This document shows positions 25,096 to 48,863 of a stretch of DNA of 64,000 nt, piece by piece. Origin of the DNA: Tichowtungia aerotolerans (GTDB taxonomy: Bacteria; Verrucomicrobiota; Kiritimatiellia; Kiritimatiellales; Tichowtungiaceae); contig NZ_CP047593.1 in assembly GCF_009905215.1 (NCBI RefSeq), positions 1,678,900-1,742,899 of the forward strand, given 5' to 3'. The translations under genes and the position numbers were made by a program. The notes under the pieces are model-generated. The model saw nothing but the letters and a program-made list of their open reading frames with translations. It searched no databases and was not told the DNA's origin. The number at the start of each line of letters is the position of its first letter. The stretch's first letter is position 1.

Positions 25096-25557
25096 ATGGA
25101 CGCAACATTAGCACCCGCATTGATTAAGCTTGGTGGAGCCGCCGCACTCGGATTTGCTGCGATTGGTTCAGCTCTCGGAACCGGAACCGCCGGAATGGCC
25201 GGAATCGGCGCCTGGAAGAAGTGCTATGCACAAAACAAACCCGCACCGTTCATTCTGCTGGTTTTTATCGGCGCACCGCTTTCTCAGACCATTTACGGTC
25301 TGCTTCTCCTGCTTGCCTTTAATAAGATGGCATTGCTCGAAACCGCTGGCGCCATGTGGCCGGCGGTGCTCGGCGCAGGCATCATCGGCGGAATCGCCAT
25401 GGGCATGTCCGCCTGGTTCCAGGGAAAAGCCGGCGCTGCCGGTTCAGATGCATTGGGTGAAACCGGACAGGGTTTTGGTAACTACCTTACCACTCTCGGG
25501 ATCGTGGAAACCGTTGCGCTTTTCGTGATGATCTTTATCCAGATGGCGCTTAAATAA
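25096..25557 (+). CDS. atpK: V-type ATP synthase subunit K (proteolipid), probably sodium-binding
   Basis: A 153-residue duplicated proteolipid with four helices in two hairpins; only the second keeps the ion-binding carboxylate (Glu138 in GIVETVAL). In Enterococcus hirae NtpK the sodium ion is held by Thr64, Gln65, Gln110 and Glu139. The matching residues here are Ser63, Gln64, Gln109 and Glu138, so sodium transport is likely. A strong ribosome binding site (AGGAGGAAA) fits the high copy number needed for a ring. Last gene of the operon. Confidence 0.93.
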   Translation: MDATLAPALIKLGGAAALGFAAIGSALGTGTAGMAGIGAWKKCYAQNKPAPFILLVFIGAPLSQTIYGLLLLLAFNKMALLETAGAMWPAVLGAGIIGGIAMGMSAWFQGKAGAAGSDALGETGQGFGNYLTTLGIVETVALFVMIFIQMALK

Positions 25558-25573
25558 GTTTCTGCAGACGAGA

Positions 25574-25684
25574 TTTCCAATCGTCGGAACTTTTTCGGCC
25601 GGTTTTTCCAATGTCTGGAAAAATCGGCTGAGTTTTTTTCCAGACATTGGAAAATTACTTCAGTAGATTCCCGATCTTTGGAGA
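25574..25684. repeat. Four-copy array of the 17-bp palindrome, 31-32 bp spacing
   Basis: Copies start at 25574 (TTTCCAATCGTCGGAAC), 25605 (TTTCCAATGTCTGGAAA), 25637 (TTTCCAGACATTGGAAA) and 25668 (TTCCCGATCTTTGGAGA), spaced 31, 32 and 31 bp. The two central ones are intact and the outer ones decayed. A near-identical decamer, TCTGCAGAYG, flanks the array at 25561 and 25711, exactly 150 bp apart. It lies between atpK and pheS. Confidence 0.85.
25604..25654 (+). terminator. 20-bp perfect hairpin made of two inverted palindrome copies
   Basis: Bases 25604-25623 are the exact reverse complement of 25635-25654, with an 11-nt loop. It stands 47 bp after the atpK stop and probably ends the V-ATPase transcript or separates it from pheS. 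A canonical T run is missing, but the stem itself is T-rich. Termination is inferred. Confidence 0.6.
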
Positions 25685-25693
25685 ATAGAGTAG

Positions 25694-25712
25694 GACAGGT
25701 TTCCGGCCTGTC
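25694..25712. repeat. Small hairpin upstream of pheS
   Basis: GACAGG (25694-25699) pairs with CCTGTC (25707-25712) across TTTCCGG. It lies 21 bp before the pheS start and could be a leader element or a remnant of a dispersed repeat. Confidence 0.4.
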
Positions 25713-25732
25713 TGCAGATGATTGGACATTTT

Positions 25733-26719
25733 ATGAACCTGGAAGAACTCAATCAGATCAAAGAGACAGCGCTGGCAGAAGCCAATGCGGCGGCGGATGC
25801 GGCGGCTCTCGAAGAGGTGCGCATTAAATATCTCAGTCGCAAGGGGCTTCTGCAGGATGTGATGGCGCAGCTTAAAGATGTGCCGAACGAAGAAAAACCG
25901 CTTTTTGGAAAAGGCGCCAACCAGCTCAAGCAGGAGCTGACGGCTCTGATTAAGGAAAAGCAGGCCGTGCTCAGTACGGGTTCCAGGGGGAACAGTTGTT
26001 TTGATCCCACGCTTCCCGGCCAGTGGCCTGCGCTCGGTTCAGAGCATCCGATCAGCAAAGTGACCGCCCGCATTGTTGAAATCTTTCAGACGCTCGGCTT
26101 TACGGTTGCTGACGGCCCGGACGTGGAAACCGTCTGGAACAACTTTGATGCACTCAATACACCCGCGGACCATCCGTCGCGCGACGAGCAGGACACCTTT
26201 TATCTGAACAGCGGCGATCTGCTGCGCTGCCACACTTCTCCGGTGCAGGTTCGCTATATGGAAAGCCACACGCCGCCGATCCGCATTATCGCTCCCGGTC
26301 GCTGCTACCGCCGCGACACGCCGGATGCCACGCACAGCGCCAACTTCCATCAGGTCGAAGGCCTGTTCGTCGCCGAAGATGTCTCGATGGCCGACCTCAA
26401 AGGCACGCTGGCTTATTTCGCGAAACAGTTCCTCGGTGAGGATGTGAAGATCCGTTTCCGTCCGCACTTTTTTCCGTTCACTGAGCCGAGCTTCGAAGTG
26501 GATTTCTTCTTCGAGGTTGGCGGCAAAGCCCGCTGGATCGAAATTCTGGGTGCAGGCATGGTCGATCCCGAAGTGTTCAAAAAGGTTGGTTACGACCCGG
26601 ACAAAGTCACCGGTTTTGCATTCGGTATGGGAATTGAGCGTCTCGCCATGATCATGTACGGCATCAAGGATATCCGCAACCTCTACGAAAACGACGTGCG
26701 GTTCCTGTCTCAATTCTAA
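25733..26719 (+). CDS. pheS: Phenylalanine--tRNA ligase alpha subunit
   Basis: A 328-residue class II synthetase subunit that charges tRNA-Phe together with PheT. An N-terminal coiled coil (about 1-85) is followed by the catalytic core with motif 2 (GRCYRRDTPDATHSANFHQVEGL) and motif 3 (GFAFGMGIERLAMI). ATG 25733 is chosen; ATG 25718 would add five residues, and neither has a strong ribosome binding site. PheT is not adjacent, unlike the common pheST arrangement: the next gene is pfkA. Confidence 0.95.
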   Translation: MNLEELNQIKETALAEANAAADAAALEEVRIKYLSRKGLLQDVMAQLKDVPNEEKPLFGKGANQLKQELTALIKEKQAVLSTGSRGNSCFDPTLPGQWPALGSEHPISKVTARIVEIFQTLGFTVADGPDVETVWNNFDALNTPADHPSRDEQDTFYLNSGDLLRCHTSPVQVRYMESHTPPIRIIAPGRCYRRDTPDATHSANFHQVEGLFVAEDVSMADLKGTLAYFAKQFLGEDVKIRFRPHFFPFTEPSFEVDFFFEVGGKARWIEILGAGMVDPEVFKKVGYDPDKVTGFAFGMGIERLAMIMYGIKDIRNLYENDVRFLSQF

Positions 26720-28285: not shown

Positions 28286-29780
28286 ACCGGATCATCCGGA
28301 ATGCTTCGGACAGGTAGCGGATGATGTCGGTGGCAATCAGGGATTCCTGAGTCAAATCCTCAGCCGCGATATCTCCGGCCAGTCCGTGAAGATGAACGCC
28401 GGTAATCGATGCTTCGAAGGGCTCCATGCCGCGTCCGAGCAATGCCGTGATGATTCCGGCGAGAACATCGCCGGAGCCGCCGGTTGCCATGCCGGGATTT
28501 CCGCTCATGTTTACTCCGAGTTTGTAATCCGGGGTTGCAACGACGGTTCCTGCTCCTTTTAAGACCACAGTCTGTCCTGTTTGATCGGATGCCGCTTTGG
28601 CCTGCGCCCAACGGTCGGTAACCGGCACGCCGAATAGCCGTTCGAACTCCCCGGGGTGCGGAGTGAGCACAACCGGACATTTGGCTTGAGCGATTTGGTC
28701 CGGCGATACGCACAGGGCTCCGGCATCCAGCAGCAACGGGACGGGACACTGTTGCAGAAGTGTTTCGATCAGCTCCGGGTTTGGCTGCAGGCCGGGGCCG
28801 ATGCAGACGGCGGTTACCTTTTTCCAATCTTTGGAAAAATCGAGCGTCAGTTTTTCAAGGTGTGGAACGGGGTGAACCATCACTTCCGGTCCGGCGGCCT
28901 GTGCGACAATCGGATAGATTTCTTCCGGCGTCAGCACGCTGACGAGTCCCGCGCCGGAGCGCAGCGCAGCCCGTGCAGCCATGGCAATGGCTCCGGCGGT
29001 TCCGACCGCTCCGCCGATCAGCAGAACGTGTCCGTAGCTGCCTTTATGGGCTTCGTTGCTGCGGTGTGGAACCCGCAGGTTGGCGCGATGAATCAGTTCC
29101 GCTTCCATATTGCCGGGTGCCAGTTCCTTGAGAATGTCCGGGACGCCGATGTCGATGACTTCAACGTTTCCAACATAGGGAACGGCTTCCGGGCGGATCA
29201 GTCCGGTTTTCGGGAGGCACATGGTTGCAGTGAGGTCGGCGCGCACCGCATTGCCTTCGGCAATGCCGGTGTCAGCGTCCACGCCGGACGGGATGTCGAT
29301 GGACAGAATAAAGCTTCGGCGAGCTTCTTCGTTGATGAATTCGATCAGTTCGTTCATGAACCCGCGGGGCGCTCCTTTGGCTCCGGTGCCGAGCAGCCCG
29401 TCTACAATAACAGCCGGGGTTCGCTCAAGACTGAGATCTTCATCCTTGGCCACCTCGATAGGGTGAATGCCCCGGCGGATCATTTTTTTAAGATGATATT
29501 CTGCATCCCCTTTGATTTTCTGTTTCGACCCGCAGATCCAGACGGTAACGTGCATGTCGGCTTCTGCCAGGAAGCTGGCAGCGGCGAAGACATCGCCGCC
29601 GTTGTTGCCGGTGCCGGCAATGAGCAGGACGGTGTCCGCCATTCGTGCATTGAGAATATCAAGCGTGATTTCCGCCACACCCTGTCCGGCGCGTTCCATC
29701 AGAAGGTCACCGGGAATATTGAATTCCTCAATGGCGCGGCGGTCGAGTTCTCGCATGTTTGCAGAAGAGATCGTTTTCAT
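28278..29780 (-). CDS. nnrDE: Bifunctional NAD(P)H-hydrate epimerase / ADP-dependent dehydratase
   Basis: A 500-residue fusion enzyme that repairs hydrated NADH and NADPH. The N-terminal YjeF domain (about 1-210) is the epimerase, with GTGNNGGDVFAAA. The C-terminal ribokinase-like domain (about 225-500) is the dehydratase, with KGSYGHVLLIGG, LTPHPGEF and the catalytic NMSGNPGMATGGSGDVLAG region. Length and domain order are normal. SKDWKK is a palindrome copy in the dehydratase domain, with a decayed second copy 31 bp away. Confidence 0.94.
   Translation of the reverse strand: MKTISSANMRELDRRAIEEFNIPGDLLMERAGQGVAEITLDILNARMADTVLLIAGTGNNGGDVFAAASFLAEADMHVTVWICGSKQKIKGDAEYHLKKMIRRGIHPIEVAKDEDLSLERTPAVIVDGLLGTGAKGAPRGFMNELIEFINEEARRSFILSIDIPSGVDADTGIAEGNAVRADLTATMCLPKTGLIRPEAVPYVGNVEVIDIGVPDILKELAPGNMEAELIHRANLRVPHRSNEAHKGSYGHVLLIGGAVGTAGAIAMAARAALRSGAGLVSVLTPEEIYPIVAQAAGPEVMVHPVPHLEKLTLDFSKDWKKVTAVCIGPGLQPNPELIETLLQQCPVPLLLDAGALCVSPDQIAQAKCPVVLTPHPGEFERLFGVPVTDRWAQAKAASDQTGQTVVLKGAGTVVATPDYKLGVNMSGNPGMATGGSGDVLAGIITALLGRGMEPFEASITGVHLHGLAGDIAAEDLTQESLIATDIIRYLSEAFRMIRFS
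28821..28868. repeat. Palindrome doublet, 31-bp spacing
   Basis: TTTCCAATCTTTGGAAA at 28821-28837 and a degenerate copy, TTTTCAAGGTGTGGAAC, at 28852-28868. Start-to-start distance is exactly 31 bp, although both lie inside the nnrDE coding region in different frames (SKDWK and PHLEK). Confidence 0.65.
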
Positions 29781-48781: not shown

Positions 48782-48863
48782 GTTCCAGGGGTTGGAAAAA
48801 AACTCCCACTCATTTTTCCAGACATTGGAAAAAATGCGAACCTCATTTTCCAAGGTTTGGAAA
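48782..48863. repeat. Three-copy array of the 17-bp palindrome, 32-33 bp spacing
   Basis: Copies start at 48782 (GTTCCAGGGGTTGGAAA), 48815 (TTTCCAGACATTGGAAA) and 48847 (TTTCCAAGGTTTGGAAA). It fills the gap between the divergent tolQ and GHL10 genes, starting 11 bp upstream of the tolQ start codon, so it could influence tolQ expression. Facing arms of adjacent copies can pair as GGAAAAA with TTTTTCC. Confidence 0.85.

What the first reader, a model, noticed from the sequence alone, without database searches (positions are those of the whole stretch)
25561..25720. Twenty-bp perfect hairpin built from two inverted copies between atpK and pheS
The central copies of the four-copy array are exact reverse complements over 20 bp with an 11-nt loop. 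Inverted pairs of uptake sequences acting as terminators are known in Neisseria and Pasteurellaceae, and this looks the same. A decamer, TCTGCAGAYG, occurs on both sides of the array exactly 150 bp apart, possibly marking the ends of an inserted segment.
Basis: partly seen in the sequence, partly recalled or inferred. Interest (0 to 1): 0.55.

Follow-up and report, generated by a model that had tools for sequence, protein, structure and literature searches.

The report
Phased palindromic protein-binding sites before pheS
The hairpin is a chance pairing inside a row of short palindromes that recur hundreds of times in this bacterial genome, spaced by whole turns of the DNA helix, which points to an unidentified chromosome-wide DNA-binding protein whose array in front of the pheS gene is kept across much of a bacterial class.

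Summary
The 20-bp inverted repeat with its 11-nt loop is real, and so is the decamer pair. The perfect pairing is incidental: it occurs in 1 of 76 neighbouring copy pairs, has no U-tract, and is not kept in relatives. The unit is a 17-bp dyad, TTTCCA-N5-TGGAAA: 508 exact copies in the genome against 0 for the reversed control, common only in part of the class Kiritimatiellia. Neighbouring copies lie at 10.5-bp multiples (22, 31-32, 42, 52-53, 63 bp; Rayleigh p about 2e-26; also inside coding DNA), as same-face binding of a cooperative DNA-binding protein would leave. The array before pheS is kept while its spacers change. A site lies within 120 bp upstream of pheS in 21 of 29 motif-bearing genomes (8 families), against 0/20 for PFK, 3/28 for uvrB and 2/23 for pheT. 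Separately, one copy plus its flanks forms a good intrinsic terminator here (25594-25632 plus T7), not seen in relatives. Uptake sequence and inserted segment are not supported. The binding protein was not found; the genome's one Lrp/AsnC-domain protein did not track the motif.

The parts
25574..25590 (.). dyad copy 1, TTTCCAATCGTCGGAAC
   Evidence: 2 mismatches to TTTCCA-N5-TGGAAA; PWM 17.8
25605..25621 (.). dyad copy 2, TTTCCAATGTCTGGAAA; also the apex of the terminator-like hairpin
   Evidence: exact; PWM 26.5
25637..25653 (.). dyad copy 3, TTTCCAGACATTGGAAA
   Evidence: exact; PWM 26.5
25668..25684 (.). dyad copy 4, degenerate TTCCCGATCTTTGGAGA, in phase
   Evidence: PWM 10.9; spacing 31 from copy 3
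25604..25654 (.). the reported 20-bp perfect inverted repeat with 11-nt loop (copies 2 and 3); judged incidental
25594..25639 (+). terminator-like hairpin (stem-loop 25594-25632, 17 pairs, 7 G-C) followed by T7 (25633-25639)
25096..25557 (+). upstream gene, V/A-type ATPase subunit K (PF00137)
25718..26719 (+). downstream gene pheS (PF01409, PF02912)
28821..28868 (.). phased pair of the same dyad inside the coding sequence of the YjeF_N/Carb_kinase gene, 31 bp apart; a 31-bp pair is present at the aligned place in L032 and L034
48782..48863 (.). three-copy array (spacings 33, 32) between an ExbB-like gene and a GHL10 gene; G032 has an array (spacings 41, 32) between the same two gene types

Best explanation
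The four copies are a phased array of 17-bp palindromic sites (roughly TTTCCA-R-N-S-N-Y-TGGAAA) for a dimeric DNA-binding protein that is active over much of the class Kiritimatiellia and has not been identified. Neighbouring sites lie whole helical turns apart, so bound dimers sit on one face of the DNA and can contact each other or bend and wrap it. Hundreds of such sites lie over the chromosome, in genes and between them. The array in front of pheS is an unusually conserved one, often reaching the start-codon region of pheS, and probably modulates pheS transcription. In this genome, and in none of the five relatives compared that carry the array, copy 2 has also been built into an intrinsic terminator that would end the ATPase operon transcript, with copy 3 supplying its U-tract. 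The 20-bp hairpin is a by-product of two neighbours with reverse-complement centres. Shown by sequence: motif, abundance, phasing, conservation, pheS association. Inferred: the protein, cooperativity, the effect on pheS, termination.
For: 508 exact copies against 0 for the reversed pattern. Spacing peaks at 22, 31-32, 42, 52-53, 63, 74 and 83. Rayleigh p 2e-26 for 88 pairs at 18-100 bp, 1.5e-11 for the 37 pairs with both sites in coding DNA, 1e-5 for 31 pairs at 100-200 bp, none at 200-400 bp; adjacent pairs alone p 6e-23, n=76; TTT-N11-AAA, TTTCC, GGAAA, TTTCCA, TGGAAA, TTTT and AAAA show no such phasing. Four other families show R 0.75-0.94 at 10.5 bp. On the coding strand G..T and A..C at positions 7/11 are equally common, 26 against 29, which does not fit an RNA stem. 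The orthologous array in relatives shifts spacing between 22, 31-32, 42-43 and 51-52, with one weak copy at 29. pheS 21/29 against PFK 0/20, uvrB 3/28, pheT 2/23; all genes in the own-genome sample 37/634. Motif-poor G112 and G230 still carry pheS arrays. Terminator.
Against: No binding protein was found; the single Lrp/AsnC candidate did not track the motif. pheT does not share the array, so a joint PheRS regulon is not supported. 8 of 29 motif-bearing genomes lack a pheS site, as do 23 of 25 motif-poor ones. Most sites in this genome lie in coding DNA (161 of 236 at up to 1 mismatch), which is unusual for a promoter regulator. Array-flanking genes have unrelated functions. CCA-N5-TGG outside the sites gave weak phasing (9 pairs, p 0.04). 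The 22- to 83-bp range of spacings is wider than one rigid complex would give.
Confidence: 0.72

Rival explanations
1. The element is mainly an intrinsic terminator between the ATPase operon and pheS; copies are kept because they make good stems.
For: 17-bp stem, -24.8 kcal/mol, T7 tail. Two convergent-gene sites in the sample also sit in 15-16-bp stems. In co-directional gaps sites lie nearer the upstream stop than the next start (27 regions, p 0.002).
Against: Only 1 of 66 co-directional and 1 of 50 convergent site orientations have a stem of 10 or more with 5 or more T. No terminator of this form in five relatives with recognisable copies. Phasing and coding copies are unexplained.
Confidence: 0.12
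2. A DNA uptake sequence of Kiritimatiellia, spread by biased uptake of like DNA.
For: Hundreds of dispersed copies, in coding and intergenic DNA, with change of the core between families.
Against: Palindromic motif, neighbours phased to the helix, inverted pairs not favoured. Competence was not examined.
Confidence: 0.05
3. Architectural sites of a chromatin-like or nucleoid protein, with no specific gene regulation; pheS is merely a long-lived gap.
For: Sites in coding DNA, fairly even density along the chromosome, unrelated flanking genes, arrays of 3-7 sites spanning about 80-200 bp.
Against: pheS stands far above uvrB, PFK and pheT.
Confidence: 0.3
4. REP/BIME-like repeats or a small mobile element with 150-bp ends at the decamers.
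For: Palindromes in clusters; decamer pair.
Against: Spacers differ between orthologous arrays and between arrays listed; relatives have the array without decamers; many copies in genes.
Confidence: 0.03

Closest known systems
Helically phased operator arrays of cooperative regulators (Lrp/AsnC family, SeqA at paired GATC; recalled, not looked up)
   Same: Several sites on one face of the helix, about 2-3 turns apart; genome-wide use.
   Different: Different motif; the genome's single Lrp/AsnC protein has an acidic presumed recognition helix and is as conserved in motif-poor genomes.
Chromosome-wide palindromic site systems: MatP-matS, SlmA-SBS, Noc-NBS (recalled)
   Same: Short palindromes spread over genes and gaps, bound by a dedicated protein.
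   Different: No clear regional bias seen along the chromosome; 5-bp spacer between half-sites; phased arrays.
DNA uptake sequences of Neisseria and Pasteurellaceae (passages of PMC2397512 and PMC2346458)
   Same: Hundreds of copies in genes and gaps; lineage dialects (the latter from a title).
   Different: Those passages describe close inverted pairs proposed or said to act as rho-independent terminators; here only 1 of 76 neighbour pairs is a long inverted match, and the unit is itself a palindrome.
Rho-independent terminators
   Same: 25594-25639 has a stem with 7 G-C pairs and a T7 tail.
   Different: Formed by one dyad plus flanks, not by the reported pair; not seen in relatives.

Membership tests
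DNA uptake sequence (DUS/USS) | hundreds of dispersed copies in the genome | tested here: met
   508 exact, control 0
DNA uptake sequence (DUS/USS) | close inverted pairs used as terminators | tested here: not met
   1 of 76 neighbour pairs with an inverted match over 10 bp; centres reverse-complement in 1 of 40
DNA uptake sequence (DUS/USS) | raises uptake or transformation | not testable with these tools
   needs a competent strain
Intrinsic terminator (reported 20-bp hairpin) | U-tract directly after the stem | tested here: not met
   stem ends 25654, then TTACTTCAG
Intrinsic terminator (25594-25639) | G-C containing stem plus U-tract | tested here: met
   17 pairs, 7 G-C, T7; -24.8 kcal/mol, z -5.5
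Intrinsic terminator (25594-25639) | kept in orthologous gap of relatives | tested here: not met
   0 of L031, L032, L034, L035, L036; L037, which lacks the array, has another candidate
Phased operators of a cooperative DNA-binding protein | dyad symmetry with spacing at helical multiples | tested here: met
Phased operators of a cooperative DNA-binding protein | identified binding protein | tested here: inconclusive
   only Lrp/AsnC (PF01037) was tested, and it did not follow the motif
Lrp/AsnC regulon | presence and recognition helix follow the motif | tested here: not met
   123 of 146 class genomes have PF01037, motif-poor G050/G084 included with N-termini close to those of motif-rich G157; all 31 genomes with triple arrays do carry it
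REP/BIME | extragenic location | tested here: not met
   161 coding against 75 intergenic sites at up to 1 mismatch
Inserted element bounded by TCTGCAGAYG | segment absent, or bounded the same way, in relatives | tested here: not met
   array recognisable in L031, L032, L034, L035, L036 without the decamer

The most novel reading that the evidence does not exclude
Part of the class Kiritimatiellia has a sequence-coded chromatin: a dedicated, still unnamed protein reads helix-phased palindromes across genes and gaps and wraps or bridges roughly 80-200-bp stretches, with the pheS array an ancient anchor that outlasts loss of most other sites.
Probability: 0.25. Interest if true: 0.85.

Novelty: new variant of a known kind. 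Interest (0 to 1): 0.6.

Why it matters
If right, part of a bacterial class carries a global, helix-phased binding code with hundreds to over a thousand sites per genome whose protein is unknown. It would be a tractable way into chromosome organisation or global regulation in a poorly studied group, and one conserved target, pheS, gives a direct assay. It also warns that a perfect hairpin between repeat copies can be incidental.

Tried and rejected
Uptake-sequence terminator pair: rejected for the pair. Mobile 150-bp segment: rejected. RNA hairpin as the conserved unit: rejected by phasing and by equal G..T and A..C counts. Background A-tract periodicity as the source of phasing: rejected. Lrp/AsnC as binder: did not follow the motif. 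PheRS self-regulation: considered because pheS stands out; weakened because pheT has sites in only 2 of 23, and no supporting paper turned up in the listing. Regulator encoded next to pheS: neighbours differ between families and none is shared. A dedicated regulon: flanking genes unrelated. Site depletion near the terminus: not seen by eye in the density table. Rfam: nothing in the window at gathering scores. Viral contigs: 3 stretches with a site pair, not followed.

Literature: listings only; passages for PMC2346458 and PMC2397512. None of the listings showed a description of this motif; subscription journals and preprints are not held, so this is weak evidence of novelty.

Limits: gene calls outside the ORF list come from my own simple script. 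The own-genome sample is 41 stretches, 862 kb of 3.88 Mb. Stretches L181-L200 were mostly picked for arrays and are biased. The 30 genomes for pheS were picked as motif-bearing, not all such genomes; one (G339) had no match and is left out of 29. PFK: 20 of 29 genomes counted (9 without a close match dropped); in f2 PFK follows pheS closely, so it is a weak control. uvrB: G101 dropped for want of a proper match. pheT: five genomes with pheT behind pheS, one at a contig edge (G087) and one partial (G115) dropped, and the starts of G101 and G296 were not placed well. Genomes within families are related, so the Fisher p overstates.

Full report
Observation. The inverted repeat is present as described, as are the four copies at 25574, 25605, 25637 and 25668 with spacings 31, 32 and 31 and the decamer at 25561 and 25711. 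The flanking genes are an ATPase subunit-C/K gene and pheS. The window is part of a 3.88-Mb single-contig genome whose closest named relatives by pheS are Pontiellaceae/Kiritimatiellales.

The unit. Each copy is itself a palindrome, TTTCCA-N5-TGGAAA. The window holds 41 at up to 2 mismatches against 3.85 expected; the genome holds 508 exact copies and none of the reversed pattern. In a sample of 41 stretches (862 kb) I found 107 exact, 136 one-mismatch and 168 two-mismatch sites; four scrambled controls of the same length gave 16-34 in all, TGGAAA-N5-TTTCCA gave 100, and changing the spacer to 4 or 6 left 0 or 1 exact copies. Position 7 is mostly a purine and the centre is C or G in about 94%.

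Phasing. Distances between neighbours peak at 22, 31-32, 42, 52-53, 63, 74 and 83 bp, that is 10.5-bp multiples. Rayleigh p is 2e-26 for 88 pairs within 18-100 bp, 1.5e-11 for the 37 pairs with both sites in coding DNA, 1e-5 for 31 pairs at 100-200 bp, and nothing at 200-400 bp. Adjacent pairs alone give 6e-23 (n=76); the parts of the motif and A- or T-runs show none, while CCA-N5-TGG outside the sites gave 9 pairs at p 0.04. Other families show the same: f4, f8, f10 and f22 have R 0.75-0.94 at 10.5 bp, with 31/32-bp arrays in f4, f8 and f22 and arrays such as 22-30-31-31-31-22 in f10. This is best explained by protein bound on one face of the DNA.

Distribution. In 288 genomes of the phylum, all with 75 or more exact copies lie in the own class, up to 1363 in one genome; outside the class the highest count is 8. 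Within the class the motif is patchy: in the same genus of family f2, G050 and G084 have 5 copies while G157 and G225 have over 600; with one mismatch allowed they have 38 and 23 against 4 and 2 for the control, so traces remain. Triple arrays occur in 31 of 146 class genomes. The centre differs between genera of f10.

The perfect hairpin. Of 40 neighbour pairs at up to 1 mismatch within 100 bp, 1 has reverse-complement centres and 1 identical centres, where 2.5% and 3.0% are expected. Of 76 pairs at up to 2 mismatches, this is the only inverted match over 10 bp; one direct match of 18 bp also exists. The stem is followed by TTACTTCAG. In relatives the array sits in the same gap, with altered spacers and spacings of 31, 32, 52 (L031), 29, 22, 32 (L032; the first copy is weak), 42, 42, 31, 31 (L034), 32 (L035) and 32, 43, 51 (L036; one weak copy); L037 has none. 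So phase is largely kept and pairing is not.

A terminator after all. A different hairpin, 25594-25632, has 17 pairs with 7 G-C and is followed by T7; it folds at -24.8 kcal/mol, z -5.5, and is kept in the minimum-energy fold of a 143-nt piece of the gap. It uses copy 2 as its apex and the first bases of copy 3 as part of its U-tract. It and the 20-bp hairpin exclude each other, and its arms are transcribed first (inference). No terminator of this form was found in the gaps of L031, L032, L034, L035 or L036, and such stems are rare at other sites. I take it as a local use of one copy.

pheS. Among 29 motif-bearing genomes with a pheS match, 21 have a site at up to 1 mismatch within 120 bp upstream, in families f1, f2, f4, f8, f10, f16, f21 and f22, often as 31-bp arrays reaching the start codon region. 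Controls: PFK 0 of 20, uvrB 3 of 28, pheT 2 of 23, all genes in the own sample 37 of 634. Of 25 motif-poor genomes 2 have one, and these, G112 and G230, have only 25 and 19 exact copies genome-wide. The upstream neighbour of pheS differs between families. The array therefore goes with pheS, not with the ATPase operon. The comparison with pheT speaks against a joint PheRS regulon.

Function. In the own genome, sites at up to 1 mismatch are 161 coding and 75 intergenic; per kb, convergent gaps 1.82, divergent 1.12, co-directional 0.59, and in co-directional gaps sites lie nearer the upstream stop (p 0.002, 27 regions). In array-rich families no orientation stood out by eye. Genes beside arrays or sites are unrelated in function, though uvrB, polA and mutS (inside the gene) are among those that carry sites. 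A global, partly architectural protein fits better than a pathway regulator.

Binder. The one Lrp/AsnC-domain protein was tested because Lrp-type octamers bind phased sites (recalled). PF01037 is in 123 of 146 class genomes, including motif-poor ones with similar N-termini, and its presumed recognition helix is acidic. All 31 genomes with triple arrays do have it, so it is not formally excluded, but it does not follow the motif. The binder is unknown.

Verdict. The hairpin as such is ordinary. The array behind it is a strong, class-limited and, in the searches made, undescribed phased binding code.

Noticed in passing
window 25694-25712: A separate hairpin, GACAGGTTTCCGGCCTGTC, overlaps the right-hand decamer; the genome has 5 places matching GNCAGGNTTCCNGCCTGNC exactly and 5 more with one mismatch. 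L032 has GC-rich hairpins in the same gap.
   Followed up: partly
coding sites in the 862-kb sample: In 27 of 161 coding sites the dyad is read in the frame that encodes FQTLE, as if the motif shapes protein sequence.
   Followed up: no
G294 contigs C98 and C135: One genome carries arrays of both centre types, TTTCCAATGATTGGAAA-like and TTTCCACACAATGGAAA-like: two binders, or a mixed assembly.
   Followed up: no
window 48782-48863 and L271: An array between an ExbB-like gene and a GHL10 gene is present in both G000 and G032, with spacings 33, 32 and 41, 32.
   Followed up: partly
L265, L266, L267: Three viral contigs carry a site pair.
   Followed up: no
L225 and its orthologues: The class's mostly single-copy Lrp/AsnC-like protein has an acidic stretch where a recognition helix is expected, so it may not bind DNA in the usual way.
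   Followed up: no
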